Shown: positions 1 through 51,020 of the stretch, piece after piece | How the letters are laid out: every line of letters starts with the position of its first letter | Numbering within the stretch: position 1 is the stretch's first letter | DNA from: Paragorgia papillata | Lineage: Eukaryota; Cnidaria; Anthozoa; Scleralcyonacea; Coralliidae | Assembly (NCBI GenBank): GCA_035771165.1 | Contig: JAWNZC010000218.1 | Coordinates: 434,001-498,000, forward strand | Length of the DNA: 64,000 bases | Direction: 5' to 3' | The notes under the pieces: model-generated | Databases searched by the model: none | Seen by the model: only the letters and a program-made list of their open reading frames with translations | What the model was told of the DNA's origin: nothing | Made by a program: the position numbers and the translations under genes

Positions 1-1260
1 CCGCGCCGCAATTTGTTTATCACTCGCCTGCGTTTTTCATGGGTCTAAGCCACTCTGGCGACTTATACCAAATTAAAGAGCATGAAATTCTGTACAACAT
101 ATGTAAATTTCAAAAAAATCGTATAGAATAGCGGCTGAGATAATTGTGTTTATATCTGAGGTAATCTGAAATATGAAACGGAACTCCCGTCAGTCGTATT
201 AATTACGCTGCGCCGCAATTTGTTTAACGCTCGCCTGCGTTTTTCATGGGTCTGTGCCACTCTGGCGACTTATACCGAATCAAAGAGCATGAAATTCTGT
301 ACAACATATGTAAATTTCAAAAAAATCGTATAGAATAGCGGCTGAGATAATTGTGTTTATATCTGAGGTAATCTGAAATATGCAACGCAACCCCCGTCAG
401 TCGTATTAATGACGCCGCGCGCAATTTGTTTAATGCTCGCCTGCGTCGTTCAAGGGTTTGTGCCACTCTGGCGACTTATAACAAATTAAAGAGCATGAAA
501 TTCTGTACAACATATGTAAATTTCAAAAAAATCGTATACAATAGCGGCTGAGATAATTGCGTTTATATCTGATGTAATCTGAAATATGGAACGCAACTCC
601 CGTCAGTCGTATTAATAACGCCGCGCCGCAATTTGTTTATCGCTCGCCTGCGTTTTTCATGGGTCTGTGCCACTCTGGCGACTTATACCGAATCAAAGAG
701 CATGAAATTCTGTACAACATATGTAAATTTCAAAAACATCGTATAGAATAGCGGCTGAGATAATTGTGTTTATATCTGAGGTAATCTGAAATATGCAACG
801 CAACCCCCGTCAGTCGTATTAATGACGCCGTGCGCAATTTGTTTAATGCTTGCCTGCGTCGTTCAAGGGTTTGTGCCACTCTGGCGACTTATAACAAATT
901 AAAGAGCATGAAATTCTGTACAACATATGTAAATTTCAAAAAAATCGTATAGAATAGCGGCTGAGATAATTGCGTTTATATCTGATGTAATCTGAAATAT
1001 GCAACGCAACCCCCTTTAGTCGTATTAATAACGCCGCGGCGCAATTTGTTTAATGCTTGCCTGCGTCGTTCAAGGGTTTGTGCCACTCTGGCGACTTATA
1101 ACAAATTAAAGAGCATGAAATTCTGTACAACATATGTAAATTTCAAAAACATCGTATAGAATAGCGGCTGAGATAATTGCGTTTATATGTGAGGTAATCT
1201 GAAATATGCAACGCAACCCCCGTCAGTCGTATTAATAACGCCGCGCCGCAATTTGTTTAT

Positions 1261-11300: not shown

Positions 11301-13439
11301 CTGAGATAATTGCGTTTATATCTGATGTAATCTGAAATATGCAACGCAACCCCCGTTAGTCGTATTAATAACGCCGCGGCGCAATTTGTTTAGTGCTTGC
11401 CTGCGTCGTTCAAGGGCTTGTGCCACTCTGGCGACTTATAACAAACTAAAGAGCATGAAATTCTGTACAACATATGTAAATTTCAAAAAAATCGTATAGA
11501 ATAGCGGCTGAGATAATTGCGTTTATATCTCAGGTAATCTGAAATATGCAACGCAACCCCCGTCAGTCGTATTAATGACGCCGCGCGCAATTTCTTTAAT
11601 GCTTGCCTGCGTCGTTCAAGGGTTTGTGCCACTCTGGCGACTTATAACAAATTAAAGAGCATGAAATTCTGTACAACATATGTAAATTTCAAAAAAATCG
11701 TATAGAATAGCGGCTGAGATAATTGCGTTTATATCTGATGTAATCTGAAATATGCAACGCAACTCCCGTCAGTCGTATTAATAACGCCGCGCCGCAATTT
11801 GTTTATCGCTCGCCTGCGTTTTTCATGGGTCTGTGCCACTCTGGCGACTTATACCGAATCAAAGAGCATGAAATTCTGTACAACATATGTAAATTTCAAA
11901 AAAATCGTATAGAATAGCGGCTGAGATAATTGTGTTTATATCTGAGGTAATCTGAAATATGCAACGCAACCCCCGTCAGTCGTATTAATGACGCCGCGCG
12001 CAATTTGTTTAATGCTTGCCTGCGTCGTTCAAGGGTTTGTGCCACTCTGGCGACTTATAACAAACTAAAGAGCATGAAATTCTGTACAACATATGTAAAT
12101 TTCAAAAAAATCGTATAGAATAGCGGCTGAGATAATTGCGTTTATATCTGATGTAATCTGAAATATGCAACGCAACCCCCGTTAGTCGTATTAATAACGC
12201 CGCGGCGCAATTTGTTTAATGCTTGCCTGCGTCGTTCAAGGGTTTGTGCCACTCTGGCGACTTATAACAAATTAAAGAGCATGAAATTCTGTACAACATA
12301 TGTAAATTTCAAAAAAATCGTATAGAATAGCGGCTGAGATAATTGCGTTTATATCTCAGGTAATCTGAAATATGCAACGCAACCCCCGTCAGTCGTATTA
12401 ATGACGCCGCGCGCAATTTCTTTAATGCTTGCCTGCGTCGTTCAAGGGTTTGTGCCACTCTGGCGACTTATAACAAATTAAAGAGCATGAAATTCTGTAC
12501 AACATATGTAAATTTCAAAAAAATCGTATAGAATAGCGGCTGAGATAATTGTGTTTATATCTGAGGTAATCTGAAATATGCAACGCAACCCCCGTCAGTC
12601 GTATTAATGACGCCGCGCGCAATTTGTTTAATGCTTGCCTGCGTCGTTCAAGGGTTTGTGCCACTCTGGCGACTTATAACAAACTAAAGAGCATGAAATT
12701 CTGTACAACATATGTAAATTTCAAAAAAATCGTATAGAATAGCGGCTGAGATAATTGCGTTTATATCTGATGTAATCTGAAATATGCAACGCAACCCCCG
12801 TTAGTCGTATTAATAACGCCGCGGCGCAATTTGTTTAATGCTTGCCTGCGTCGTTCAAGGGTTTGTGCCACTCTGGCGACTTATAACAAATTAAAGAGCA
12901 TGAAATTCTGTACAACATATGTAAATTTCAAAAAAATCGTATAGAATAGCGGCTGAGATAATTGCGTTTATATCTCAGGTAATCTGAAATATGCAACGCA
13001 ACCCCCGTCAGTCGTATTAATGACGCCGCGCGCAATTTCTTTAATGCTTGCCTGCGTCGTTCAAGGGTTTGTGCCACTCTGGCGACTTATAACAAATTAA
13101 AGAGCATGAAATTCTGTACAACATATGTAAATTTCAAAAAAATCGTATAGAATAGCGGCTGAGATAATTGCGTTTATATCTGATGTAATCTGAAATATGC
13201 AACGCAACTCCCGTCAGTCGTATTAATAACGCCGCGCCGCAATTTGTTTATCGCTCGCCTGCGTTTTTCATGGGTCTGTGCCACTCTGGCGACTTATACC
13301 GAATCAAAGAGCATGAAATTCTGTACAACATATGTAAATTTCAAAAAAATCGTATAGAATAGCGGCTGAGATAATTGTGTTTATATCTGAGGTAATCTGA
13401 AATATGAAACGGAACTCCCGTCAGTCGTATTAATTACGC

Positions 13440-15150
13440 CGCGCCGCAATTTGTTTAACGCTCGCCTGCGTTTTTCATGGGTCTGTGCCACTCTGGCGAC
13501 TTATACCAAATCAAAGAGCATGAAATTCTGTACAACATATGTAAATTTCAAAAAAATCGTATAGAATAGCGGCTGAGATAATTGTGTTTATATCTGAGGT
13601 AATCTGAAATATGAAACGGAACTCCCGTCAGTCGTATTAATTACGCCGCGCCGCAATTTGTTTAACGCTCGCCTGCGTTTTTCATGGGTCTGTGCCACTC
13701 TGGCGACTTATACCAAATCAAAGAGCATGAAATTCTGTACAACATATGTAAATTTCAAAAAAATCGTATAGAATAGCGGCTGAGATAATTGTGTTTATAT
13801 CTGAGGTAATCTGAAATATGCAACGCAACCCCCGTCAGTCGTATTAATGACGCCGCGCGCAATTTGTTTAATGCTTGCCTGCGTCGTTCAAGGGTTTGTG
13901 CCACTCTGGCGACTTATAACAAATTAAAGAGCATGAAATTCTGTACAACATATGTAAATTTCAAAAAAATCGTATAGAATAGCGGCTGAGATAATTGTGT
14001 TTATATCTGAGGTAATCTGAAATATGCAACGCAACCCCCGTCAGTCGTATTAATGACGCCGCGCGCAATTTGTTTAATGCTTGCCTGCGTCGTTCAAGGG
14101 TTTGTGCCACTCTGGCGACTTATAACAAATTAAAGAGCATGAAATTCTGTACAACATATGTAAATTTCAAAAAAATCGTATAGAATAGCGGCTGAGATAA
14201 TTGTGTTTATATCTGAGGTAATCTGAAATATGCAACGCAACCCCCGTCAGTCGTATTAATGACGCCGCGCGCAATTTGTTTAATGCTTGCCTGCGTCGTT
14301 CAAGGGTTTGTGCCACTCTGGCGACTTATAACAAATTAAAGAGCATGAAATTCTGTACAACATATGTAAATTTCAAAAAAATCGTATAGAAATAGCGGCT
14401 GAGATAATTGCGTTTATATCTGATGTAATCTGAAATATGCAACGCAACCCCGTTAGTCGTATTAATAATGCCGCGGCGCAATTTGTTTAATGCTTGCCTG
14501 CGTCGTTCAAGGGTTTGTGCCACTCTGGCGACTTATAACAAATTAAAGAGCATGAAATTCTGTACAACATATGTAAATTTCAAAAAAATCGTATAGAATA
14601 GCGGCTGAGATAATTGCGTTTATATCTGATGTAATCTGAAATATGCAACGCAACCCCCGTTAGTCGTATTAATAACGCCGCGGCGCAATTTGTTTAGTGC
14701 TTGCCTGCGTCGTTCAAGGGTTTGTGCCACTCTGGCGACTTATAACAAACTAAAGAGCATGAAATTCTGTACAACATATGTAAATTTCAAAAAAATCGTA
14801 TAGAATAGCGGCTGAGATAATTGCGTTTATATCTCAGGTAATCTGAAATATGCAACGCAACCCCCGTCAGTCGTATTAATGACGCCGCGCGCAATTTCTT
14901 TAATGCTTGCCTGCGTCGTTCAAGGGTTTGTGCCACTCTGGCGACTTATAACAAATTAAAGAGCATGAAATTCTGTACAACATATGTAAATTTCAAAAAA
15001 ATCGTATAGAATAGCGGCTGAGATAATTGCGTTTATATCTGATGTAATCTGAAATATGCAACGCAACTCCCGTCAGTCGTATTAATAACGCCGCGCCGCA
15101 ATTTGTTTATCGCTCGCCTGCGTTTTTCATGGGTCTGTGCCACTCTGGCG
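13440..15150 (+). repeat. Long-range duplicate of 10140-11850 inside the satellite
   Basis: Rare marks recur in the same order about 3,303 bp (16 monomers) apart: ATAATGCCGCGGCG at 11163 and 14467, the shortened CAACCCCGTTAG just before each, and GTTTAGTGCTTGCC after each. A second, longer block duplication therefore shaped the right half of the array. Confidence 0.7.
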
Positions 15151-15203
15151 ACTTATACCAAATCAAAGAGCATGAAATTCTGTACAACATATGTAAATTT
15201 GAA

Positions 15204-15384
15204 GAAATCCTATCGTATAGCGCCTGAGAAAATTGTGTTTTTGTATGATATTCTGCAATAGCGACCACCTGATGAATATGGAGATAACTTCGCAATAACA
15301 GCGATAATTGAATCGACGGCTGAATCGAAGGCCGAATCGAAGGCTGTGAATCGAAGGCTGAATGTGGTGCATACTTCACAGTGG
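15204..15384 (+). mobile_element. Right terminal module of a satellite-bearing transposon
   Basis: The last monomer breaks at 15203 into a unique stretch. It holds a 10-bp minisatellite (repeated GGCTGAATCGAA words) and ends in GGTGCATACTTCACAGTGG. The same module ends the second satellite block at 50930-51020, and its reverse complement begins that block at 45747. The module is therefore a terminal inverted repeat, and the 15-kb array is probably the right arm of an element whose left end lies outside the window. Confidence 0.75.
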
Positions 15385-15387
15385 TTC

Positions 15388-16841
15388 CCAGCTATACTTC
15401 CTACTATTACCGCAATTATTAATACGTACGTCCTTCGATTCATCGACGTTTCCGAGTGCTTGGAAGACAGCAGTTATGCCTCTCGTAAAACAAGATGATC
15501 ACGAACAAGCGACTAATAATAGACCCATTTCATTATTACCAGTTCTGTCCAAGGTCTGTGAAAGAATCGCTCATAATCAGTTCACTGCTTACCTCATCCC
15601 TAGAGAGAGACTAACAACAAAACAAAGCCGGAACAAAAAATGGCATTCAACAGAAACTTCATTAATCCACACAACTGATGCAATTCTTAAAGGCATTGAC
15701 AACAAAAAACTTTCAGCCTTTGTTTTCCTTGATATGAGCAAAGCATTTGACAGCATAAACCATGAGATATTACTGGCTAAATTACAAGATGTGAGCGCTT
15801 CCTCTCCTGTTCTTCATTGGTTTCGTAGTTATCTTACAAACAGACAACAAGTTGTACGCATTCATTCGGTGGTTTCTGACCATTGCCCGTCGTTTGCGGT
15901 GTACCACAAGGCAGTATTTTGGGGCCCTTATTTTTTTACTGTCTATCTATGTTAACGATCTACCGTCGGTTCCACAGAATTGCTATGTAGACGACACTAA
16001 ACTCTATGCTTCGTTTCGCCTGGAGGATTGTCAATATACTGCGACAGAGATGAACTGTGATTTGGTCAGAGTGCGTAATTGGTGTTTTAACAACCATTTA
16101 TTATTAAACCCCGAAAAGACAAAGTTAATGGTATTTGGTAGTCGTCAAATGAGATCTAGAATGCCAGATTTCCGTCTGTCTTTACTGGGAAGAGACATCG
16201 TCTCTTCACTAATAATTAAGGACCTTGGAGTGACGTTCGATCCAGAAATGTCGTTCGATGATCACATAATGAACACAGATTCAACCTGTATGTCGCGTAT
16301 TGGACAAATTAACCGCGTTAAACATGCCTTTGACAAACAAACTTTAATTACGGTGATCAATGCCCTAGTTTTTAGCAAGTTGTATTATTGTTGCAACGTT
16401 TGTTGCAACGTTTGGTCCAATACAACGGACAAAAATCTGCACAAATTACAAGCCGTACAAAATTTCGCCTGTCGAATCACTAGTGGATCGAAAAAGTTCG
16501 ATCATATTGCTCCTCTTCTAAAGGAATTACACTGGTTTCCAGTCAAAACCCAACTTTATTATCGCCAGGCAGTGATGACATTTAAATGTATGACCGGATG
16601 TGCCCCTAACTATCTTGTCTCACAATTTATTAAGAGGGGAGACGTCAGTAAACGTAATACAAGAAGTTCTCAGCAACTCAATATTCCACTCTTCCGAACA
16701 GCTTCGGGTCAAAGAACTTTTTATTATAGATCAGTGACGTTATGGAACGATTTTAAAAATGACCTCAAGTTATGTAGTTCAGTTGATGTATTTAAACGTT
16801 TATTAAGGCGTGATTTGTTCATGAGATTTTTAAATAACTAG
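15388..16841 (+). pseudogene. Non-LTR retrotransposon reverse transcriptase, 5'-truncated and frameshifted
   Basis: This is a decayed CR1/L2-type reverse transcriptase. Readable parts in order are NRPISLLPVLSKVCERI (fingers), FLDMSKAFDSINH (motif A), GVPQGSILGPL near 15895, a YVDD catalytic box near 15990 and the thumb/C-terminal region to a stop at 16841. The reading frame changes twice between about 15870 and 15960, so no intact protein can be made. The endonuclease half is missing: coding sequence starts abruptly beside the satellite terminus at 15384. The satellite element therefore either inserted into this retroelement or cut it off. A (ATTCA)n tail at 16971-16990 marks the 3' end, as expected for CR1/L2-like elements. 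Confidence 0.85.
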
Positions 16842-19578: not shown

Positions 19579-21000
19579 ATGCCCAAAAATGCGCATTGTT
19601 GCGTTGGGGGATGTGACAATGATGAAAGATACCCTGAAAAGTGGAAAGTTAGATCCAATGATGGGTCAATGAACTTCTACAAATTTACCAAGCACCCCAG
19701 TAAAAGGCCAATATGGATTGAAAACATAATTAAAGGGCGTGATAATCTCAGTCCAGGGAGTGGAACATTTGTTTGTGCAAATCACTTTGTTGATGGTAAA
19801 CCAACCAGGGAAAACCCAAACCCTACCCTCTTCCTTACCCCTAGAGGCAACAAGTATGACAGTACCCCAACAAAAAGAAAGCGACCTGGTGGAAGGATAT
19901 CTGAAGGGAATAACCCTGGGACAAGTGGAGAGGGTACTGTGAAAGAGATGGAAGAAATAGAGCATTGTGAAGAAGTGGAGGATCCACCAGAAGTTGACAG
20001 CCCTGACTATCTATTTGAAGAGGTAATCCGAAAAGGAATGGTACACTTTTACACTGGATTGCCAAACCCAGAAACATTTAAATTCCTTCATGATCAACTA
20101 CGACCCAAAGCAGTAAATATGAATTACTGGAAGGGAGATATGCAAGTGCAAAAGGAAAAGCCATCCATGAATACAAGACGCAGGCTATCTGATTTATTTG
20201 AGGTATTTGAGAGTGCTGGTATGGAGCCACACCCAATTAAACCAGGTCCCAAAAGAAAGTTAGTGCTTGACGATGAGTTGCTGCTGACTGTGATGAGACT
20301 TAGGCTGGGTCTTCTTGTAGATGACTTGGCCTTTAGATTTAAAATCTCACGTGCCCTTGTGTCACAAATATTCGCAACGTGGGTTCACTTAATGGCAAAG
20401 GAGTTAAACTGGCTAATAATGTGGCCAAGCAAGGGGCAAGTACGTCGACAACTGCCAGAGTCCTTTAGACGAGCATATCCTAATGTCAGATGCATCATTG
20501 ACTGTACTGAGGTATTTACGGAAACCCCTAGTGCATTGGATATCCAGGCTGCTCTATGGTCAGACTACAAACACCATACCGCAATGAAATTTTTGGTTGC
20601 AATCACACCAAATGGTGCCCCATCATTTGTGTCTCCATGCTATGGAGGGCGAGCAACTGACAAATTTATTGTTCAAGATTGTGGGGTTTTTAAAATGCTT
20701 GAACCCTTTGACCAAATCATGGCAGACCGAGGATTTAAAATTAGAGAGGAACTTATGTTATATCAAGCACATTTATGTATTCCACCCAGTTCAAGAGTTG
20801 GCATGCAAATGGTTTCAGAACAGGTGAAAGAAACATCAAGAATTGGCAATATCAGGATATATGTTGAACAAGCTATTGGTCGGCTAAAGTACTATAACAT
20901 CATCAAGCATGAACTCCCATTAAACTGCCTTCCACTATGTGATGATATTGTTTGTGTTGTTGCTGCACTTACCTGCCTCCAAAATCCACTTTGTAGCTGA
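19579..21000 (+). CDS. THAP-domain DDE transposase (ISL2EU-like)
   Basis: This is an intact 473-residue protein expected to bind the element ends in the nucleus and catalyse cut-and-paste transposition. Residues 1-90 form a THAP zinc finger: CVGGCDND, a conserved W, then CANHFVDG and NPNPT (C2CH pattern). A basic, acidic-rich linker follows. At about 235-275 lies a helix-turn-helix (LLVDDLAFRFKISRALVSQIF), then a DDE_Tnp_4-type RNase H fold. Its likely catalytic residues are D in IIDCTE, D in IMADRGF and E in YVEQAIGRLK. The start is the first ATG after the presumed leader intron acceptor. No stop or frameshift is present, unlike its neighbours, so this copy could still be functional or is young. 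A Harbinger-type or Kolobok assignment is less likely given the YqaJ partner and AT duplication. Confidence 0.9.
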   Translation: MPKNAHCCVGGCDNDERYPEKWKVRSNDGSMNFYKFTKHPSKRPIWIENIIKGRDNLSPGSGTFVCANHFVDGKPTRENPNPTLFLTPRGNKYDSTPTKRKRPGGRISEGNNPGTSGEGTVKEMEEIEHCEEVEDPPEVDSPDYLFEEVIRKGMVHFYTGLPNPETFKFLHDQLRPKAVNMNYWKGDMQVQKEKPSMNTRRRLSDLFEVFESAGMEPHPIKPGPKRKLVLDDELLLTVMRLRLGLLVDDLAFRFKISRALVSQIFATWVHLMAKELNWLIMWPSKGQVRRQLPESFRRAYPNVRCIIDCTEVFTETPSALDIQAALWSDYKHHTAMKFLVAITPNGAPSFVSPCYGGRATDKFIVQDCGVFKMLEPFDQIMADRGFKIREELMLYQAHLCIPPSSRVGMQMVSEQVKETSRIGNIRIYVEQAIGRLKYYNIIKHELPLNCLPLCDDIVCVVAALTCLQNPLCS

Positions 21001-21114
21001 ACTGAAAAAGTGGATACTGTAGCTACTATATCTTTTGTTTGCAAATTATTTAATTCATTCCTTCAAAATTTTATTCAATATCTATATATTTTTATATGTA
21101 CTAAAGACACATTA

Positions 21115-21214
21115 TTAACCCATTCCTGCCTAGACAGCTCTTATCATTTTTCTCTGGCTAACGCTTGATAATTTTACTTGCCAAGGGGAGGCGGTCTAGG
21201 CAGGAACAGGTTAA
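21115..21214. mobile_element. Short palindromic MITE, TTAACC...GGTTAA
   Basis: A 100-bp inverted-repeat unit: TTAACCCATTCCTGCCTAG at the left pairs with CTAGGCAGGAACAGGTTAA at the right. It lies between the two convergent ISL2EU genes, and related ends occur near 52449 and 61799. Confidence 0.65.
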
Positions 21215-21345
21215 CTTTTATCTATTACAATTCCCAGTACCTACTGTATTATAAAATTTGTTATTTTATTTACATTATCAATATCTAATGTCAACATTTA
21301 CAGTATTAACAGTATTTGAACGGTTACTTTGCTTATGAATCAATA

Positions 21346-23247
21346 TTAATAATCAATAGATGTCGTACATCCTTGACAAAACCACTCTTCAGTTTCTCCA
21401 ACATTTGTCACATTTGCACAATTAAAGTGGAACATTGCTCCACAAATATCACAACAAACACTATTTTCATTTGATTCAGGCCGGAGCTCTTCACATTCAA
21501 AAATAACTTTGTCACATAATGAACAAAAGAAAATTGACTGCATATTAAGCAGTACCTTTACCATGTAAGACTTAAAAAATAACTCTAAATTCTGTAATAA
21601 ATGTGTCCAGAATGCCAAATCACACTGGATTAAGTCAACATGAATACCCTTTGTAGTCCAAACCACAAAAAAGGTTCTGGACATTCCAGTGGTGCTCATT
21701 TGCCCAGTGACTTGAAAGTAGTACTTGTGGCTTCTTTTTAGTGGAATTTTTCCATTGACACATTCAAGAAAGTTTGTTTCATTCCACTTCTCTTCCACAG
21801 CATGCTCCCGGATACCAAAAGGACATTTAATTTCTACACATGCTGGTTGACAACACCCACATGTCATAAGACCATCAGGGCTTGCACCGATGTAAGGCTT
21901 ATCTTTCAACACCCAAAGCCCAGACTTTTTCATTATACAGTTTTGGTGCAGGGAAAGGGCAAAAGCATGAAATTACCGAAAAGCTTGATCCTCCTTATCT
22001 CTACCCCATTTGATTGCTGGAAGGTGATCAATGGATGGACTGCCAAATACAAGATTAGCCACCATCTGTGTTGTTTTGGGCCTAACAGGCCCCCTATTTC
22101 TTGAGATGGAATCAATTTTGGTACTTACATCTTTAAAGTTGGATGATGGTATTCTTCCTTTTCTCTGGGCTAACCAGGAAGGGGATTTTCCTTGCTGTCT
22201 TGTTGCCTTCTCAATACTTTGTACTTCACTTTCTTTGAGGGGTAGAATCTCCATAAAACCACTTATTATATCTTGATCTGACTGACTTCCATTTAGAGAC
22301 TGCAGGTATTTGTCTGCTCTGTCAGTAATCTTTAATAGCCAAACTTCCTCAAACAAATCATCAGATTCTGTGGAATAGAACAACTGTGCAGTTGGTCGTA
22401 TCTTCCTGTATTCTGCCAAGAACATATTTTTCTGCTTGTCAGTCACCACTTGCTGGCCTTCTTTACGAGGATCAAAGACCTTCCAGGATTCAGAAATTAT
22501 TCCAGCAGGAACAGTCCTGTCCTTTGTTTTTTTGTCTTTCCGAATGACCATATCCATAATTCTACCAGGCTGGACATCCTTTCTGGTTGAGACATTCCAG
22601 CCACATGGGACTGAAGTACATGCTGGATCATTATAACCAGCATGTGATGGATACTCTAACTTGTACAGCATGGCAATCATGTGGTTACAAGTAGCACTTG
22701 TACCTGCAATACATGTGCACCAGCCACACAGGATAGTCCCATCTTTTTTAAACGCAACCCATACCTCTCGTGGTTCATTTCGAATATGTTGTGATGGTGT
22801 GACATTGCACTTTAATACACACTTGCTGTTGTTGTTGTCAGAGTACATGACAGCTCCCACAAAGTTACTCATCCAGTATGAGAAAGCTTTTTGATCCTTA
22901 TACTTGCCAATATATTCTGAATGAAACTCCTTGTTGGCAAGGATATAGGCAAAAACTTTCCCAAGGTCCACAGATGGCCACTTAGTCACATCATCAATCC
23001 ATGTTTGGGTACTTCTGGGGTCTTCTAACCCATGCTTTTGTAAACGCCCTTGATACTCGGCATGTAGTTTAGTATTATGCTCTTCTTGAGAAAGCTTGAC
23101 TGGTAGTTTAAGCTCAAAGGCAGAAAATGCCCTTGCCACCAGTTCAATCTTTCTACCAGAAGTAGACAATCCCCTTAGACTCAGAAAGTCCTTAAGGGTG
23201 CCCACTGTCAAGGTGTTGAAATCATCATATCCCTCCATAATAAACAA
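21346..23247 (-). pseudogene. SAP-SWIM-YqaJ nuclease-PHD protein, one in-frame stop
   Basis: This is the second gene of the ISL2EU-like element. Domains in order: a SAP motif (residues about 12-42, LKDFLSLRGLSTSGRKIELV) for DNA binding; a SWIM zinc finger (CGWCTCIAG then CNHM, about 172-190); and a YqaJ/lambda-exonuclease-type nuclease starting at WLAQRKGRIPSSNF and IKWGRDKEDQAF. After a TAA stop at about 21972 the same frame continues with IGASPDGL and VEIKCP, which hold the metal-binding D and E-x-K. A C-terminal PHD-like finger follows (CSLC, CCDIC, FHFNC, WFCQGC). The lesion looks like a single nonsense change in an otherwise open frame. A small intron starting at the GTAATT is possible but would remove conserved-looking sequence. 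The leader exon and donor lie in the right inverted repeat; an acceptor CTGTAG is at about 23260. Confidence 0.8.
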
Positions 23248-35948: not shown

Positions 35949-38900
35949 TAAGTTTAAGTTTAAGTTTAATAGAATTCGTCACATAAGACAACGTGGCAGG
36001 AGAAGGTAAACAGGACTAATGTCCCAATTGGTGTACCTCCCCTTGTTACAAAGACACATAAAATATATCACAAGGTTTACAAAAATACGCCTAGTAGATT
36101 ACATGAAGAAGTTATTAATAAGTGAATGATGATTTATGGCGGCTGGTACATAGAAATTTTGTCAAAATGGAATGAAGTGATAGACTTTTTAAATAGATGT
36201 AAGCTGGTAATTTGCTTAAAATCCCTAGGTAAATTGTTCCATAGGGCTACTGTTCTGGGGAAAAAAGAAAACTTGAAATAATTTTGTCTATGTTGGGAAG
36301 TTATACAGAAATTATTTGGATCAGAATTTCGGGTATTATATCGAATAGTAACTGGAGAGAAATATTTATTAGCGTTGAAATCCACTAAACCAGAGATAAT
36401 TTTAAAGAACAACAGTAAGTCACTTGCTTCTCTTCTATATTGAAGGGGAAGCATCTTTAGTTCGAGGAGTCTGTCAGTGTATGACTTCGCAGGGTAGTTT
36501 AAAATGAATTTTGTGGCTCTTCTTTGGACGTTTTCGAGCAGTCGACGGTGCTTTAATGTGTAGGGTGACCATACATTTGAACAATATTCAAGTTTGGGTC
36601 GGACCAAGGAATAATACAGAAGTTTTCTGGTGTTGATATCATTAAGGTCTCGACCACAAACACGCTTGACAAGCCCTAAGGTCTTGTTAGCCTTGCTGAC
36701 AATCGCTTCAATGTGTTTTGTCCATTGGAGATCGTGTGATACTGTAATGCCTAGATCTGAAGTGTAAGATACACATTCAAGTTCCTGGTGTCCAAGTTGA
36801 TATCGTGATAAAGCTGAAGTACTTGACCTTTTCCTAGACATGCAGATGGCTTTGCATTTATCGGCATTAAATGCCATCTTCCAGTTACTGCTCCACTCTA
36901 GTAGACGTGTAAGATCTTGCTGCAGCAGACACCGGGAACTTGCGGAGACAATAGGTCTATATACTTTTGTGTCATCTGCGAAAAGAGCAATATTTGAGCC
37001 GTTTTCAAGGTAATCAGGCATGTCGTTGACATATACAAGAAATAGCAACGGCCCGAGTAAAGAGCCTTGTGGAACTCCGGAGGTAACAGGTAACCAATCA
37101 GATGTTGCCCCATTCAGAACAACACGTTGGTATCTGTGCGTTAAGTAGCTTTTAAACCAGGATAGCAGTTGCCCTGAGATGCCAAACTGATGCAATTTAT
37201 ACAGTAGGAGATTGTGAGAAACCCTATCGAACGCTTTGGAGAGGTCAAGATGGATTACATCCACTTCCTTTCCGCTAGAAACTAGGTCAAGTATATTATG
37301 GTAAACTTTCAGGAACTGGGTGACTGTTGAACGTCCCTTCAGGAATCCATGTTGTAGGCGATAGAGGTGCGGTGATATGTGTGGGCAACAATAGTTGAAG
37401 ACGCATCTCTCAAGAACCTTAGAAATGACGCACAGGAGCGAAATTGGTCGATAGTTCGCAACAAGAAGGCGGTCGTCTTTTTTATACACTGGCGTGACAT
37501 TTGCTTTTTTCCAGTTAGTCGGAACAGATCCTGAAGAGAGTGAAAGGTTGAATAGGCGACATAGGGATGGAGCAATCTCCCTAGCTGTAAATTTCAGCAA
37601 GGTGCCGGGAATTTCGTCAGGCCCAGTAGCTTTCTTGGGATCTAAGTTCATTAGGACTTCTAGGACTTCATTGGTGGAAAGTTGAATTGATGTCAGCTGT
37701 TCTCTTGTAAACGGCTCAGGAAAGTCAGGGGAGAAGAGCGGCGATTCAGCGGCAGGGGTAAAAACAGAGTGGAAAAACAAGTTGAATAAATCAGCCTTTT
37801 GCTTTTCGTCAACTATAAGCCGTTAACCATCTCTCAGAAAGTTTGGTGGAGTATTATTAGTCGTTGAGAGCTTGACAAAGGACCAAAAGCGTTTTGGATT
37901 ATCAGATAGTGATTCCTTCATCTTGGTAGTGTGGTCTTTACGTTTCTTGGCAATCAACGATTTTGTTTGTCGACGAATTTCTTTAAACTTATGCAAATCC
38001 CTCTCTAGACCAGATTTGTGTGCTTTCTTCCTTTGTTTGTCCTTCTTTTTTATGACAGACAAAAGCTCTTTATCAATCCATGGATGGTGAAATACATTAG
38101 GCGATTTACATTTTGGCACATGATCATCAACAGCACTTAGAAACATGTCACACCAATTCGTCAGTGATGCATTAACATCATTCTCAATGAAGCACATGTC
38201 CCATGGGGCATGTCTAAGTGTCTCGTCTAAGCTTTCCCAATTGACTCTCTTATAGTTGTAGGTAATACGCTTAGTAATTGGCTTTTTTTAAATCTTGAGA
38301 TCTAGATCAAATCGAATAATCCTGTGGTCTGAGGTTAATATATCTTCGGAGACATGGGTATTGTGTAGTTTCTCAGGAAAGTTTGTCAGAACCAAATCTA
38401 GAATGTTGTGGTTCCAGGTCGGGGTATTAATTGTCTGCCACAGAAAGTTGTCTTTAATAACTTTTGTAAAGTAATTGTGAAGTTGGTCATTTGATGTAGC
38501 TGTCCCAGTACTCCAGTCGATGTTAGGTAAATTGAAATCCCCACAAATAAGCAAACGGTCAAATTTAGCTCTCGATACCAGACGAAGTGATTTTTTGAAT
38601 TCTTTAAGATAGGATAAATCAGAGTTCGGCGGTCTGTAAAAGACAACGGCTAAAAATTTACGCCTTGAGTCTGGACGAATCTCACAAATTAGCATCTCAG
38701 CATTTCCTTCTAGGTCTTTCCGTCTAAAGCTCTGTATATTATTTCTCACTGCAAGCAATACTCCCCCTCCGGTTCGATTCTCTCTGTCCCGTCTATAGAT
38801 GGTAAAGTCCGGGCCCGGTAAGAGTTCGCTGTTTAAGATGTTCGGTTTTAGCCAAGTCTCACATAGGAACATCAGGTCCGTTCCAGTAGAAAGAATCTGA

Positions 38901-39335
38901 AGTTCGGCCGTTTTGGTGACAATGCTTCTCGGGTTCATGTACAAGCATGAAATCCTTGAACAATAAGACGTACGATTTTCCGAATTTGTAGTTGGAAGGT
39001 AATGAGGACCTGGCAACGGATGCACGTCTCCGCTAAGTTTGATTTCAAGGAGCTGAGGGTTAAAAGAAGCTGTACAATTTGCGTAATAATTTAGTCTTCT
39101 CTTTAAGAACCTTGAACGGCTCATACAGCACGACACGTTGTTTGTCAAGTGAGATGACAGACCATTGTAGAATATGTGTCCAATAGGCGACTGAAGACTT
39201 GATAGATTGTCGTAACTCCATGACGATGATAAATTGGCAAGAGATGAACCAAAGTAAACAATAAATGAACCAAGAAGAATGATATAAAGCGGAGCCAACA
39301 ATTTGACGTCCGCCATTATGAAATGTTTTGGATTT
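35949..39335 (-). mobile_element. CR1/L2-like non-LTR retrotransposon, nearly complete
   Basis: The 3' tail is (AAACTT)n on the coding strand (35949-35967). The coding region runs from a start at 39316 to a stop near 36134, and the 5' leader is only about 20 bases. It is inserted in the right arm of the large element: the arm reads GGGGTATCGTTATTTT before it and ATTTATTAGCAAACACTG after it, as in the uninterrupted left arm. Confidence 0.88.
36134..39316 (-). pseudogene. Retrotransposon polyprotein: APE endonuclease and RT, two lesions
   Basis: A single ORF2-type protein. The N-terminus has a hydrophobic stretch (LYIILLGSFIVYFGSSL). The endonuclease follows: YMNPRSI, LCETWLKPN, VFYRPPNSDL, ICGDFNLPNIDW and SDHRIIRFDL. 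After a one-base shift in an A-tract at about 38285 the linker continues (HHPWIDKELL, KRFWSFVK) to a TAA at about 37823. The reverse transcriptase then runs on in frame: FRPISLLCVISKVLER-type fingers, HLDLSKAFDRVSH, SGVPQGSLLGPLLFLVYVND and the catalytic FADDTKVY. A thumb domain and a C-terminal region ending in LHLFKKSITSFHFDK follow. Two lesions only, so it is the youngest retroelement here. Confidence 0.9.
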
Positions 39336-39584
39336 ATTAGCAAACACTGAATTTTATAATTACTTTCGAGGCGCTACTTCCGGGGGGGTCGTTACTTTGG
39401 GAACTTTACGGTATATGCACCTCCAATCCGCGTTTTATCCCCCAATCTGCGTTTTATCCCCAATCCGCGTTTTATCCCCTAATCCGCGTTTTATCCCCCA
39501 ATCCGCGTTTTATCCCCAATCCGCGTTTTATCCCCCAATCCGCCATTCCGCCAATCCGGATCCGCGTTTTATCCTAACCCAATC
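39336..39584 (+). repeat. Minisatellite blocks of the right arm
   Basis: TTACTTTCGAGGCGCTACTTCC-type units, TACGGTATATGCACCTCC, then about seven CGTTTTATCCCCCAATCCG units. Inverted relative to 25104-25430. Confidence 0.85.
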
Positions 39585-45746: not shown

Positions 45747-46455
45747 CCACTGTGAAGTATGCACCACATTCAGCCTTCGATTCAGCCTTCGATTCGTCCT
45801 TCGATTCAGCCGTCGATTCAATTATCGCATATTATGGCGAAGTTATCTCCATATTCATCAGGTGGTCGCTATTACAGAATATCATACAAAAACACAATTT
45901 TCTCACGCCCTATTCTCTACGATTTTTTTAAATTTACATATGTTGTACAGAATTTCAAGCTCTTTAGTCTGGTATAAGTCTCCAGAGTGGCACAGACCCA
46001 TGAACGACGCAGGCGAGCTTTAAACAAATTGCCGCGCGCCGTCATTATTACGACAGACGGGGGTTGTTTTCCGTAATTTCCGATTACCTCAGATATAAAC
46101 ACAATTTTCTCAGGCGCTATTTTATACGATTTTTTTTAATTTACATATGTTGTACAGAATTTCGTGCTCTTTAATCTGGTATAAGTCTCCAGAGTGGCAC
46201 AGACCCATGAACGACGCAGACGAGCTTTAAACAAATTGCGGCGCGCCGTCATTAATACGACTGACGGAGGTTGTTTTGCATCTTTCAGATTACCTCAGAT
46301 GTAAACACAATTTTCTCAGGTGCTATTCTATACGATTTTTTTTTATTTACATATGTTGTACAGAATTTCATGCTCTTTAATCTAGTATAAGTCTCCAGAG
46401 TGGCACAGACCCATGAACAACTCAGACGAGCTTTAAACAAATTGCGGCGCCTGTT
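45747..46455 (-). repeat. Left arm: terminal module and inverted satellite monomers
   Basis: TTCGATTCAGCC minisatellite units and GGCGAAGTTATCTCCATATTC, then monomers with phase word GGTATAAGTCTCC at 45971, 46177 and 46384 (206-207 bp). They are opposite in orientation to the 1-15203 array. Confidence 0.88.
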
Positions 46456-47133
46456 CAATTTCCGCCGTTCATGGGTCTGTGCCACTCTGGTGACTTGTAC
46501 TAGATTAAAGAGCATGAAATTCTGTACAACATATGTAAATTTAAAAAAATCGTATAGAATAGCGCGTGAGAGAATTGTGTTTATATCTAAGGTAATCTGA
46601 AAGATGCAAAACAACCTCCGTCAGTCGTATTAATGACGGCGCGCCGCAATTTGTTTAAAGCTCTCCTGACTCCTGCGTCGTTCATGGGTCTGTGCCACTC
46701 TGGAGACTTATACTAGATTAAAGAGCATGAAATTCTGTACAACATATGTAAATTAAAAAAAATCATATAGAATAGCACCTGAGAAAATTGTGTTTACATC
46801 TGAGGTAATCTGAAAGATGCAAAACAACCTCCGTCAGTCGTATTAATGACGGCGCGCCGCAATTTGTTTAAAGCTCGCCTGCGTCGTTCATGGGTCTGTG
46901 TCACTCTGGAGACTTATACCAGATTAAAGAGCATGAAATTCTGTACAACATATGTAAATTTAAAAAAATCGTATAGAATAGCGCCTGAGAAAATTGTGTT
47001 TATATCTGAGGTAATCTGAAATACACAAAACAACCCCCGTCAGTCGTATTAATGACGCCGTGCGGCAATTTGTTTAAAGCTCGCCTGCGTCGTTCATGGG
47101 TCTGTGCCACTCTGCCACTCTAGAGACTTATAT
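46456..47133 (+). repeat. Right arm: satellite monomers in array orientation
   Basis: TTCATGGGTCTGTG starts units near 46467, 46681, 46887 and 47093. Orientation flips at about 46450-46460, making a long palindrome with the left arm. The last unit is interrupted at 47134 by the composite element and resumes at 50847. Confidence 0.88.
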
Positions 47134-47135
47134 TA

Positions 47136-47415
47136 CAATCGGGAGCAAATGACTTGAGACAACTTTCGCAAATGGAGTTAATTTGATTCGCTTAGCGGAA
47201 AATCGACCTTCCAAGTTTGGCGACCCCCTCCCATATCAATGTTGACCAAGTAAAATAATGCAATTTGCAGGACACAGGTATAATAGGTGCACAACATTGA
47301 ATGGGGGGAAGGGGGGAATTATGAAGAAAAGCGAAGTTTTTTTTTAGTCAATTGTTGGATATGTAAATTTTTAGCAAAAATCTCTGAAGCGTCTCAACCA
47401 TTTTGCTCCCGATTG
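47136..47415. mobile_element. Left end cassette (MITE-like)
   Basis: 280 bp with about 25-bp inverted ends (ACAATCGGGAGCAAATGAC; complement at 47390-47415). Nearly identical to 50561-50844 throughout, including GGCGACCCCCTCCC and GGGGGGAAGGGGGGAATTATG. No coding potential. Confidence 0.9.
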
Positions 47416-47577
47416 TCCGAATAAACAAACCAGTGCCAATATTTCATAACGACTATCCTAATGCCCTTGTCAGCTTTTTCCTAATAAATATTAAACGTCC
47501 AAACCTTTTTAGTCCATTTTGCCTCACAAAAAGAGTTGTTGCCAAATTTGACACGCTATTTGTTAGATTTTCTGCAT

Positions 47578-48918
47578 ATGGGCGTGGCGTCCACAACAAA
47601 TGTATCGGCCCCGCACATAAGACAAGTCTACCTAATTACGTATAGTCAGGCAAATATTGAAAATTTTCCAACAAGAAGATCGTTTGCAGAATGCGTTGTC
47701 GAGGCCTTTAACGTAACAGGCGCTGGTGTTATACAGTGGGCATGCTGCAGGGTGGAACACAGGGACAAAGGTGAACATTATCATCTGGCAGTAAAGTTAG
47801 AAAGAATACGACGATGGTCAGCTGTGAAAACGTTGTTATAGGAGAAGTATGGTATATCGGTTCACTTTTCCAACACACACAATAATAATTACAGTGCTTG
47901 GAAATACGTTACGAAAGAAGATGAAGAGGTTTTACAGAGTGCAAATCATCCGAATTTATGGAATTCCAAGCCACCAAGAACAGATAAGGCATGTGAAAAG
48001 AGATGTAGCACTGGTAAGACGCGGAGTTCAGCCAACGCAACAGAAGAAGCACCATTGAAACAAACAAAAAGAAAGCGTCTATCGGCCTTTGAATTATCAA
48101 AGATAATTTTAGAGAGAGGAATAAAAACGAGGACCGAATTACTAGCGCTTGCACAAGAGCAGAACGAAGAAGGGAAAACGGACATCGCTGAATTCGTGGT
48201 GAACCGAGGTGCGAGAGTTGTTGCGGGAGTCATTGATGCGGCATGGGGGATGAAACACGCCAAGGATACATTGGAGCGCTCCCAGAAAAGCAGAATGGAA
48301 ATTCTAGAAGAGGTACTTGCCGAAGAATGTGCTGCTGGCTGTAATGGAAACTGGTATTACTCCGCCCATGAAACCTTAGAGAAGAATGGCATTAAAAAAT
48401 CGACCTTCGCGAACGCAGTATTAAATCTTCTTGATAAAGGGCGGGGGAAATACAGAAATATTATGATTGTTGGCCCCACTAACTGTGGTAAAACGTTTAT
48501 GCTAAACCCGCTCAATAAGGTATTCCGTACCTTTTGCAACCCAGCAACAACGACGTTCGCCTGGGTGGGTGCAGAAAAGGCCGAGTGTATCTTTCTCAAC
48601 GACTTCCTGGGGTCGCCCCAAGTAATTTCCTGGCACGATTTTCTACTTATGCTGGAGGGCCAACAAGTACATCTTCCCGCTCCAAAAACCCACTACGCCA
48701 ACGATCTTGTATTCGATACGGATACTCCGATCTTCGCAACTGGTAAACGTACAATGGTTTACATTAAGAACGGATGTATTGACGAAAAAGAAACCGAGAT
48801 GATGTCGGTGCGATGGAAGGTGTTTTATTTTAACAACCAATTCAACGAAGGCGAACAGCGCGATATTCCAGTGTGTGGAAAATGCTTTGCAGCATTTCTT
48901 TTAAACTCTAAAGACTAA
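47578..48918 (+). pseudogene. HUH endonuclease-SF3 helicase Rep (virus-like), one amber stop
   Basis: 446 codons from the ATG at 47578, open except a TAG at codon 88 (47839-47841). HUH motifs: VYLITYSQA (codons 17-25, motif I), HYH at 67-69 (motif II, metal ligands) and YVTK at 110-113 (motif III; Y110 would nick DNA). The C-terminal half is a superfamily 3 helicase: GPTNCGKT Walker A at 299-306, CIFLNDF (Walker B-like) at 337-343, and PIFATGK in the motif C position, where T/S and N are usual. Such proteins start rolling-circle or rolling-hairpin replication in CRESS-DNA viruses and parvoviruses. The lack of other lesions implies recent loss or readthrough. Its position between two transposon end cassettes suggests capture. 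Family members in cnidarian genomes are known to me only as uncharacterised proteins. Confidence 0.85.
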
Positions 48919-48967
48919 CATTGTTAAGCCGAGACTGATGTAACAACTGCTGTTTATATATGATGTA

Positions 48968-49047
48968 CGGTTAACGATTTACACCAGTGATTATAATACG
49001 TGTTAATTTGATTCATAATTTATGTTGGGTGTAAACCGTAAATCGTT
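48968..49047. other. Imperfect stem-loop between Rep and transposase
   Basis: CGGTTAACGATTTACACCA at 48968-48986 matches the reverse complement of GTGTAAACCGTAAATCGTTGG near 49029-49049, apart from a 7-base extra segment. The stems enclose a loop of about 40 AT-rich bases. It lies in the gap between the convergent ends of the two genes; it could be a shared terminator or a remnant replication origin. Confidence 0.4.
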
Positions 49048-49259
49048 GGCCGCAGTTCATTTACATATTCACGAAAAATACAGTAAAACAATTTTCGGTT
49101 AACTTATTATAGGCGAACAAGTTATTTCCCAATCATGCCCCACTCTTCTTTCCCCTTACACAAACATACATATAGACAAAAGCAGATTTATTTAGTCATT
49201 TGACACTTGTTTATTTACTTACAAATTTATTCCATTCAGTTACATCTCAGAACTAGCGA

Positions 49260-50355
49260 TCAGAACCTAGTGCGACCTCCGTTGTTTTTAATAATGTGAT
49301 TTATATTTGCGGGCATACTTGAAATTATTTTGTTAATTAAGGTTTTATCAAGCGCTTTAAATGTATTTTCGATTCTTTGGGCATACTGCTCGACCGACTC
49401 GTACGTTATTTTTTTCTCTGTTGCTTGCTTTTTAAGGTTACGCTTTACCAAGTGAAATACATTTTCTATTGGGTTTAAGTCAGGACTTCGCGGTAGTATA
49501 GAGAACAGCTTCGCCGAAATTGTTTTTAAAGGCACTCCTGGCAGCCCCACTGTTCTGGCTTGGGTCTCCGTCCTGTATAAACATACGGCTATGGGAACGA
49601 TTTGATAACCGAAAAATTCCATGGAAATGCTCCAAGATAATGTTTTTAAAACATTCTCCATTTAGATGCTCGTATTGATGACAAAATATCACGCCTTCTC
49701 CGTAAGAAATAGCTACAAAAAATTTCACGGTTCTCCCTCCCGAGCCCACATGAGATCCTTTTGACGTACATCCTGGCGCAAGCCCTTCGCTTGGCTTTCG
49801 CCAAATACGACTTACAGGAGCAATGGAATCGCTGTATGGATTATATTTGTGAACAAAGCTTACACCCTCCAGATAGAAGCATACGTCGTCTGTCCAAAAC
49901 GTTTTCGGTTTCGTCTTTTCCATTGTTTTAGCGAACTTCAATCGTTTAACTAAATCCTTAGAAGTTAGCAGGCCTTTCTTGCGCGACACGAGAAACTGGT
50001 ACCCCAACCGATTCAGTGTACGTCGACCTGTCCATATAGAAATTCGGGAAGAATCAATTCCAGACTCAGCTAAAATTCTAGAGCATGATACAGTCCCGTC
50101 GGTATGACGTAACTTCAAAAGTGTTCGTTTTATTTGTCTTTCATCTTTCTCTGAAAGCTTTCGGCGGCGTCCAGTGGATTTCTTCCTTTTGACACGTTGA
50201 GCTCCATTTACAATTCTATACACCGAAGCTCTTGAAATATTGCATTTCTTGGCGATGTCGCTTGCAGATAATAGTGTATATTCATTAAGTAATTTTACTT
50301 CAGCCTTAACTTCAGGTCTCGTTTCAGCGTAAAAAAACCATTTAGTAGGTTTATT
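49260..50355 (-). pseudogene. Tc1/mariner transposase, one frameshift
   Basis: The N-terminal helix-turn-helix (SASDIAKKCNISRASVYRIV) is followed by a GRRRK hook-like basic motif (TGRRRKLSEKD) and a second HTH. The catalytic core has FWTDDVCF (first D) and MFIQDGDPSQNS (second D). After a one-base shift near 49510 it continues with SPDLNPIEN (E). Spacing between second D and E is about 35 residues, typical of the superfamily. The open frame extends upstream of the helix-turn-helix without an ATG, so the start is lost or lies in another exon. TA duplication at the element ends fits this enzyme. 50356-50560 has no gene. Confidence 0.88.
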
Positions 50356-50560
50356 TCATGCAGTCTTTGCAGTCGCAGATTTCATCTGATACGCGGTGAC
50401 GTAATAAGCGATTTTTTAAACTGATGATAATTAATTAATAATTAATTGATGACGTCATCATCATCGTCATCACACTCAACAAGGAACCTGCATTCATAGT
50501 ATAGTGTTTGGACTGGGTTAAGATGTTTTTCTATAAAAGAATAAAGATTGTAATTTCAGA

Positions 50561-50844
50561 CAATCGGGAGCAAAATGACTTGAGACAACTTTCGCAAATG
50601 GAGTTAATTTGATTCACTTAGCGTTAAATTGACCTTCCAAGTTTGGCGACCCCCCTCCCCCATATCAATGTTGACCAAGTAAAATAATGCAATTTGCAGG
50701 ACACATGTATAATAGGTGCACAACATTGAATGGGGGGAAGGGGGGAATTATGAAGAAAAGCGAAGGTTTTTTTTAGTCAATTGTTGGATATGTAAATTTT
50801 TAGCAAAAATCTCTGAAGCGTCTCAACCATTTTGCTCCCGATTG
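50561..50844. mobile_element. Right end cassette (MITE-like)
   Basis: 284 bp, the direct-orientation partner of 47136-47415, with perfect CAATCGGGAGCAAAATG and CATTTTGCTCCCGATTG ends. TA follows at 50845-50846, after which satellite sequence resumes. Confidence 0.9.
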
Positions 50845-50846
50845 TA

Positions 50847-51020
50847 GATTAAAGAGCATGAAATTTTGTACAACATATGTAAATTTAAAAAAATCGTATA
50901 AAATAATGCCTGAGAAAATTTTGTTTTTGTATGATATTCTGCAATAGCGACCACCTGAATCGAAGGCCGAATCGAAGGCTGAATCGAAGGCTGAATGTGG
51001 TGCATACTTCACAGTGGTGT
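50847..51020 (+). repeat. Rest of the satellite monomer and right terminal module
   Basis: GATTAAAGAGCATGAAATTTTG continues the monomer cut at 47133. TTTTTGTATGATATTCTGC, four GAATCGAAGGC units and GGTGCATACTTCACAGTGG then end the element, exactly as at 15204-15384. Confidence 0.88.

What the first reader, a model, noticed from the sequence alone, without database searches (positions are those of the whole stretch)
47136..50844. Composite transposon carrying a virus-type HUH-SF3 Rep next to a Tc1/mariner transposase
Two direct copies of a 280-bp MITE-like cassette bracket a 3.1-kb payload with both genes. The satellite monomer on either side rejoins perfectly around a TA duplication, so the unit moved as one. 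This is the eukaryotic counterpart of a bacterial composite transposon. It joins a cut-and-paste enzyme with a replication initiator, which could allow an excised circle to be copied by rolling circle and then reinserted. I know of no described family with this exact pairing, though I cannot search.
Basis: partly seen in the sequence, partly recalled or inferred. Interest (0 to 1): 0.9.

Follow-up and report, generated by a model that had tools for sequence, protein, structure and literature searches.

The report
Jumping gene with virus-type replicator
This 3.7-kb stretch of a likely coral or anemone genome is a damaged copy of a repeated mobile element that carries a cut-and-paste transposase and a virus-type replication gene between two near-identical hairpin cassettes, and its relatives form tandem arrays that copying as a circle before insertion would explain.

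Summary
Window 47136-50844 is a 3,709-bp unit: cassette, HUH-SF3 Rep, convergent Tc1/mariner transposase, cassette, with TA on both sides. The same 618-Mb genome holds five independent full copies (six with a haplotig), all with TA outside and the same non-TA inner junctions. Other families, with Reps 47-58% identical, keep the pairing: 25 of 55 Rep places have a listed transposase within 3 kb (0.06 expected), 23 convergent. Three arrays read are head-to-tail; two have one cassette in nearly every unit. One Rep-only array of about 19 units (46 kb; ten read) sits at a single TA of a dispersed repeat. In three of five copies both cassettes share private variants, as if born from one cassette. 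Ten of ten compared cassettes share a hairpin stem; its pattern occurs 1,956 times genome-wide, the reversed control twice. I infer transposase-driven insertion of cassette-bounded units and likely Rep-driven rolling-circle copying of a one-cassette circle. Unequal crossing-over is the main rival; a transposase-only tandem dimer counts against a need for Rep. The architecture is known from KolobokP; the Tc1/mariner-Rep pairing was not found in ten literature searches.

The parts
47134..47135 (.). TA target duplication, left
   Evidence: sequence; TA at both ends of all six copies
47136..47415 (+). left cassette (long terminal direct repeat) with its own inverted ends CAATCGGGAGC...GCTCCCGATTG
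   Evidence: DNA fold z -4.57
47237..47299 (+). hairpin core CAATGTTG...CAACATTG of the left cassette
   Evidence: 0 expected in shuffles
47416..50560 (+). internal region; edges TCCGAA...TTTCAGA conserved in all six copies
47587..48918 (+). Rep: HUH nuclease plus SF3 helicase; homologous to residues 35-477 of P0001 (91%), one in-frame stop, N-terminal part absent
49260..50334 (-). Tc1/mariner transposase, frameshifted; 94% and 91% identical to P0121 in its two parts
50561..50844 (+). right cassette (long terminal direct repeat)
   Evidence: DNA fold z -7.18
50666..50728 (+). hairpin core CAATGTTG...CAACATTG of the right cassette
50845..50846 (.). TA target duplication, right
   Evidence: sequence

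Best explanation
This is one damaged copy of a repeated composite-like Tc1/mariner transposon, cassette-Rep-transposase-cassette flanked by TA, whose transposase likely inserts cassette-bounded units and whose HUH-SF3 Rep would copy a one-cassette circle by rolling circle. Steps shown: the unit recurs at five independent sites with TA outside and fixed inner junctions; the Rep-transposase pair recurs in other families; in two arrays read, units carry one cassette each (a unit without it seen once in each), and both these arrays have TA at each outer end; where a cassette is missing a short footprint-like junction is left. Steps inferred: (1) Rep nicks in or near a cassette and releases a circle of internal region plus one cassette; (2) rolling circle makes head-to-tail multimers; (3) the transposase takes any stretch that starts and ends with a cassette and inserts it at TA, so both cassettes of a new copy descend from one; (4) cassettes also excise alone.
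For: Six cassette-Rep-transposase-cassette copies, two of them one insertion on haplotigs. 25 of 55 Rep places have a listed transposase within 3 kb, 0.06 expected, 23 convergent; both lists are truncated. The Rep model matches AAV Rep68 (E 1.9e-07), geminivirus and circovirus Rep domains; PF23343 matches in 13 of 26 relatives. The transposase profile matches Sleeping Beauty (E 7.9e-16). Tandem arrays: C406 about 3.48 kb and C80 4.04 kb with both genes, C10 2.42 kb with Rep only in the units tested. The C10 array starts and ends with a cassette next to TA; the joined flank matches 40 of 40 scored uninterrupted places (345 candidates) at 98-99%. C80 has TA at both ends. In three of five copies both cassettes share variants absent from the other four: 5 columns (3 substitutions, 2 one-base gaps), reached by 2 of 120 re-pairings; the true pairing alone has the smallest summed distance of 120; no fixed left/right difference. 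Ten of ten cassettes compared, from nine elements, share the hairpin stem; 1,956 places against 2 control. Synonymous sites are saturated in 26 of 28 Rep pairs and 9 of 10 transposase pairs while dN is 0.2-0.7, so both genes were kept by selection.
Against: No circular molecule or nicking was observed. C269 holds a transposase-only tandem dimer whose cassettes carry the same hairpin motif, one arm changed in the right one, so neither multimers nor hairpin depend on Rep in cis. KolobokP forms multimers without any Rep. Gene conversion could also make the two cassettes of a copy alike; two of the five shared columns (both in C128) also show the same state in half-copies or solos left out of the test. 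In C10 one variant is shared by neighbouring units 8-10, a hint of stepwise growth. C406 inner junctions have no cassette at all, so that array did not arise from cassette-bearing circles unless the cassette was lost first. Repeated words that could be Rep-binding iterons are clear in only one family (two loci); they are not seen in the window. Rep and transposase distances are not fully parallel between families.
Confidence: 0.6

Rival explanations
1. The element moves by transposase only, and its multimers likely arise after insertion by unequal crossing-over or break-induced recombination between the direct cassettes, as proposed for KolobokP; Rep would act only by nicking the cassette to provoke recombination.
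For: KolobokP has the same multimers and no Rep. A transposase-only dimer exists at C269. Array ends keep one TA pair, as expected if a single insertion grew in place. One C10 variant is shared by neighbouring units.
Against: A Rep-only unit with an open Rep frame reached about 19 near-identical copies. Hairpin places also lie at tandem spacings of 1.2-1.75 kb, too short for both genes, on five contigs among the first 50 places listed (coordinates only, not read). Rep keeps a nuclease and helicase under selection. Among gap-free columns of ten C10 units 28 substitutions are private to one unit and 1 is shared.
Confidence: 0.3
2. These are remnants of a CRESS-type ssDNA virus or plasmid that took up a Tc1/mariner transposon, so that the arrays are integrated viral concatemers rather than transposons.
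For: Rep has the fold of viral Reps, and arrays of circle-sized units look like replication concatemers.
Against: No ORF of 110 aa or more other than the two genes lies in the internal region. Three scans of viral contigs and one search of phage records confirmed no relative. The composite copies and the two arrays with both ends read sit at TA with transposon ends.
Confidence: 0.06
3. Chance nesting: two unrelated MITEs happen to lie on either side of a Rep fragment and a transposase.
For: None beyond the single window.
Against: The same order with the same junctions recurs at five independent sites, and the gene pair recurs in other families.
Confidence: 0.01

Closest known systems
KolobokP (Kojima and Bao 2022, PMC9587614; abstract, found passages and sections 7 and 15 read)
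   Same: Internal region between long terminal direct repeats that have their own inverted ends; solo repeats; (LTDR-INT)n-LTDR and LTDR-(INT)n-LTDR multimers; a transposase plus a second DNA-cutting enzyme.
   Different: Transposase is Kolobok-type with target duplications of 3-5 bp and the partner is a His-Me homing nuclease. Here the transposase is Tc1/mariner, the target is TA, the partner is an HUH-SF3 Rep, cassettes read are about 250-285 bp with a shared hairpin (C269, transposase only, about 205 bp), and one array holds about 19 units.
Tc1/mariner transposons
   Same: DDE transposase related to Sleeping Beauty, TA duplication, ends starting CA, small excision-like footprints.
   Different: Ordinary members have one gene and simple inverted ends (recalled); here the ends are direct cassettes and a Rep gene is added.
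CRESS-DNA virus and parvovirus Reps
   Same: HUH nuclease with HxH and YxxK motifs and an SF3 helicase (motif names recalled).
   Different: No capsid gene; lies in transposons with TA ends.
Teratorn (PMC10175614; search listing with start of abstract only)
   Same: A DNA transposon (piggyBac-like) fused with another mobile replicon.
   Different: 180 kb long; the partner is a herpesvirus (recalled), not a Rep element of 3.7 kb.
Helitrons and Replitrons (recalled)
   Same: HUH enzyme in a eukaryotic mobile element.
   Different: They have no DDE transposase and no TA-flanked inverted ends; the Helitron helicase is Pif1-type, here SF3.

Membership tests
Tc1/mariner superfamily | transposase with HTH and DDE_3 domains of this superfamily | tested here: met
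   HTH_Tnp_Tc3_2 E 8e-06 and DDE_3 E 6.6e-05 for the broken pieces, both below curated cut-offs; all 21 relatives used in the profile list PF13358 and 20 of 21 list PF01498; profile matches Sleeping Beauty 7.9e-16 and Mos1
Tc1/mariner superfamily | TA target-site duplication | tested here: met
   six of six composite copies, C10 and C80 arrays, joined C10 flanks match uninterrupted repeats
Tc1/mariner superfamily | 34 residues between the second and third acidic residues (DD34E) | tested here: met
   counted by eye in P0121; the window copy is frameshifted there
Tc1/mariner superfamily | this transposase cuts at these cassette ends | not testable with these tools
   only footprint-like junctions CATG, CTG and AGTG where a cassette is missing
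KolobokP | long terminal direct repeats with own inverted ends around an internal region, solos, multimers | tested here: met
KolobokP | Kolobok-type transposase and TSD of 3-5 bp | tested here: not met
   Tc1/mariner transposase and TA
KolobokP | His-Me finger nuclease | tested here: not met
   the second gene is HUH-SF3 Rep
CRESS-type Rep protein | HUH nuclease plus SF3 helicase | tested here: met
   model mean pLDDT 71, HUH part about 90, part of the helicase below 50
CRESS-DNA virus | capsid gene | tested here: not met
   no ORF of 110 aa or more besides the two genes in the internal region
CRESS-DNA virus | free circular genome copied by rolling circle | not testable with these tools
   no reads available
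Helitron | Rep joined to Pif1-type helicase, no inverted ends | tested here: not met
   helicase matches Parvo_NS1 and PPV_E1_C in some members and AAV Rep and E1 folds; inverted ends present
bacterial-type composite transposon | flanking cassettes are insertion sequences that encode transposase | tested here: not met
   no transposase match in the cassettes; the transposase lies inside

The most novel reading that the evidence does not exclude
A replicon-transposon hybrid: a virus-type Rep copies one-cassette circles by rolling circle, a Tc1/mariner transposase returns the resulting monomers or multimers to the chromosome at TA, and the shared hairpin cassette lets Rep-less and transposase-less units ride along, so that a DNA transposon becomes a generator of tandem satellite arrays across a genome.
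Probability: 0.45. Interest if true: 0.93.

Novelty: new variant of a known kind. Interest (0 to 1): 0.83.

Why it matters
Cut-and-paste transposons gain copies only indirectly. An element that owns both a transposase and a rolling-circle initiator could copy itself outside the chromosome and re-enter, joining virus-like replication with transposition. The same cassette would explain monomers, solo cassettes and TA-flanked multimers, so it makes the origin of some tandem arrays directly testable. The group looks abundant in this genome, with 1,956 hairpin places, so it is not a curiosity of one locus.

Tried and rejected
Contig-length coincidence between Rep and transposase protein hits as a linkage test: 4 shared lengths, 1.4 expected, P 0.053, so not used (one transposase row was missed when copying, 119 of 120). 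A third protein search from a distant Rep added no shared contig length by eye.

Relatives in viral contigs, in the bacterial and archaeal genome collection and in phage records: none confirmed.

The weak hairpin between the 3' ends of Rep and transposase in the window as an origin: DNA fold z -0.13, rejected. Iterons: window 194 of 200 shuffles reach the observed count; C406 and C121, one family, 0 of 200; Rep-only C10 3 of 200; C80 4 of 200, for an AT-rich word. Sequence-only comparison of the Rep with solved structures: two weak unrelated matches and none; the fold search was needed.

Hairpin as a Rep-specific origin: weakened, because transposase-only C269 cassettes carry it too. The hairpin is not without exceptions: the exact arm pair was not found in L046, L048 and L049, nor in one cassette each of L035 and L068.

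dN/dS could not be given as a number between most families because synonymous sites are saturated; it is 0.39 and 0.65 in two close Rep pairs and 0.22 in one transposase pair.
Full report
What is there. The window lies in a 618-Mb genome in 473 contigs. The host is likely a cnidarian: named relatives of the Rep come from Acropora, Porites and Actinostola; the species was not identified. The unit at 47136-50844 is 3,709 bp. Two direct cassettes of 280 and 284 bp differ by 6 of 280 aligned bases. Each has its own inverted ends. Between them lie a Rep gene and, convergent to it, a Tc1/mariner transposase. A TA stands on each side, and the joined flanks run into the surrounding 207-bp satellite with an 8-bp extra stretch and small changes.

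The two proteins. The Rep family has an HxH motif, a YxxK motif and an SF3 helicase with invariant residues over 26 relatives (motif names recalled). Pfam REP_ORF2-G2P matches 13 of 26, Parvo_NS1 7 and PPV_E1_C 6 at E 0.01. An AlphaFold model (mean pLDDT 71, pTM 0.46, HUH part about 90) finds AAV Rep68, geminivirus, circovirus and papillomavirus E1 structures. The transposase profile finds Sleeping Beauty and Mos1. Both families are large: 794 and 199 database hits, 120 of each listed.

It is a family. The cassette gives 37 matches in the genome. I examined 24 regions: the window, 20 fetched regions and three search loci. Six hold cassette-Rep-transposase-cassette. One of these, on C362, has the same satellite flanks as the window and is taken as its haplotig, so there are five independent insertions. 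All six have TA outside. All six have the inner edges GATT(G/A)TCCGAA and TTTCAGACAATC, so the inner edges are part of the element and not decayed TA sites. Two solo cassettes with TA on both sides and no match to the internal region were seen (L041, and L050 at 79%). The rest are truncated, rearranged or otherwise flanked copies. The window copy and its haplotig lack about 215-218 bp that hold the Rep N-terminus in the four other copies. An open Rep frame and an open transposase frame persist among the copies.

Decay. Cassette divergence predicts 3.3 changes at 142 family-conserved positions (97% level) of the two window genes and 1.1 stops; 6 changes and one stop are seen. At the 90% level 12 of 212 positions are changed against 5.0 expected, but family members themselves vary there (medians 2.2% and 2.7%), and P0001 has 3 changes at the 94 strict Rep positions. 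The fit to a unit that arrived with working genes and like cassettes is therefore only rough.

One cassette per birth. Over the five independent copies, 5 alignment columns carry a variant shared by both cassettes of one copy and absent from the other four copies: one in the window, one in C72, three in C128; 3 are substitutions and 2 one-base gaps. Only 2 of 120 re-pairings of left and right reach 5, and 2 of 120 reach the 3 substitutions. The summed left-right distance (29, permutation mean 34.8) is lowest for the true pairing alone. No column separates lefts from rights, and no variant is shared by two lefts only or two rights only. Left out of this test were the haplotig C362, the half-copies C140 and C67, the two solos and the outermost columns; two of the three C128 columns show the same state in some of these half-copies or solos. 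The two cassettes of a copy thus tend to descend from one, as in LTR elements. A one-cassette intermediate explains this; gene conversion is the alternative.

Other families. The Rep query gave 89 matches (89 of 1,062 candidates scored) in 55 places. The transposase query gave 115 matches (113 of 1,019 candidates scored) in 60 places. 25 of 55 Rep places have a listed transposase within 3 kb, against 0.06 expected, and 23 are convergent; 25 of 60 transposase places have a listed Rep within 3 kb. Both lists are truncated: the C80 array is not counted as linked although its sequence holds both genes, so 25 is a lower bound, but how many of the other 30 lack a transposase is unknown. Rep-only C10 is one that does.

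Tandem arrays. C406 (period about 3.47-3.48 kb, 99.4-99.5% alike) and C80 (4.04 kb, 99.9%) repeat Rep plus transposase head to tail. C10 repeats a 2.42-kb unit with Rep and no transposase match (99.97%). Further arrays are seen from coordinates, for example C78, C322, C321, C324, C270. C80 and C10 units carry one cassette of 253-266 bp. C121 is a single copy, cassette-Rep-transposase-cassette with TA on both sides, of the C406 family. In C406 itself the left end has a cassette next to TA, while the three inner junctions in L051 are TTTTCAGA-CATG-TCTGAA. One C80 junction reads CTG and one C10 junction AGTG where a cassette is missing. These look like Tc1/mariner excision footprints (inference). 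Spacings of 4,003 and 3,730 in C324, and 3,730 and 3,446 in C321, differ by about one cassette.

Array ends. The C10 array starts TA|CAATCCTGGCC and ends CCAGGATTG|TA, from 335881 to 381976, about 19 units by length; I read ten units and both ends. Its joined flank with one TA, 199 bases, matches 40 of 40 scored places (345 candidates) over its full length at 98-99%. So the array sits at one TA of a dispersed repeat whose other copies are uninterrupted. C80 has TA at both ends. In ten units of C10, among gap-free columns, 28 substitutions are private to one unit and 1 is shared; one further column is shared by units 8-10. This fits a burst but does not exclude recent crossing-over.

Hairpin. 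Ten of ten cassettes compared, from nine elements, have the arms CAATGTTG and CAACATTG with a C-run before and a G-run after, loops of 41-77 bases, and fold better than shuffles (z -3.9 to -11, base-composition shuffles; dinucleotide shuffles z -4.57 and -7.18 for the window cassettes). Whole cassettes of different elements are 0.57-0.67 identical by global alignment (background not measured), except window-L050 0.82, C80-C245 0.74 and the two cassettes of C121 0.98. In an exact scan some degraded cassettes lack the full pair (L046, L048, L049, one each in L035 and L068). The pattern TCAATGTTGN{25,55}CAACATTGA occurs 1,956 times in the genome, the reversed control 2 times. Of the 50 places listed, the first on contigs C1-C10, 32 have another within 4.5 kb, often at spacings of 1.2-1.75 kb, too short for both genes; I did not read them. 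C269 has a transposase-only dimer between cassettes with the same motif, one arm changed in the right cassette. The hairpin is thus a common cis element of the group, and its reader, Rep or transposase, is not settled.

Selection. Synonymous differences are saturated in 26 of 28 Rep pairs and 9 of 10 transposase pairs, while dN in those pairs is 0.2-0.7. Both genes have been kept working.

How it likely works. Shown: recurrence, pairing, TA, cassettes, multimers, one cassette per unit in two arrays, cassette loss with footprint-like junctions. Inferred: Rep releases and copies a one-cassette circle; the transposase uses any two cassette ends to insert monomers or multimers. The strongest single argument is the Rep-only array, where the transposase is gone but an open Rep frame and the cassette stay. 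The strongest counter-arguments are the transposase-only dimer and KolobokP, which multimerise without Rep in cis. Supply in trans would reconcile the former, but that is untested.

Known kinds. KolobokP has the same architecture with other enzymes, so the architecture is not new. Ten searches of an open-access library, of which I saw the listings, showed no paper describing a Tc1/mariner element with a Rep; most subscription papers and the Repbase reports are not in that library.

Noticed in passing
window 1-15240 and 45890-47114: Long 207-bp satellite array (73.7 copies) and a shorter one that switches orientation near 46450-46466; the element is inserted in the latter.
   Followed up: no
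window 15309-15363, 45768-45820, 50955-50996: A 12-bp repeat (TGAATCGAAGGC and its complement) lies next to the satellite stretches each time, as if satellite and 12-mer belong to one larger repeat.
   Followed up: no
window 19579-23247: An ORF that reads like a THAP-DDE transposase beside ORFs that read like a YqaJ-type nuclease, perhaps an ISL2EU-type element (recognised from memory in the translations, not tested).
   Followed up: no
window 36134-39343 and 15362-16841: ORFs that read like non-LTR reverse transcriptase and endonuclease (from memory, not tested).
   Followed up: no
L029:1501-1574 and L030:1501-1574: A 74-bp piece that is just the hairpin core lies beside a Rep fragment at two places with the same surroundings.
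   Followed up: partly
L043, L044, L045 (C88): Three 260-bp cassettes with the same flanks and no TA, 26-30 kb apart, probably carried in a larger duplication.
   Followed up: no
L051:3693-4177 and L054:3123-3602: Eight copies of GTAAAGTG in both orientations between the 3' ends of Rep and transposase (0 of 200 shuffles), like Rep-binding iterons.
   Followed up: partly
G000 C1 4.214-4.239 Mb, C4 309-321 kb, C5 387-391 kb, C6 1.916-1.920 Mb: Hairpin places at tandem spacings of about 1.63-1.73 kb, too short for both genes; not read.
   Followed up: no
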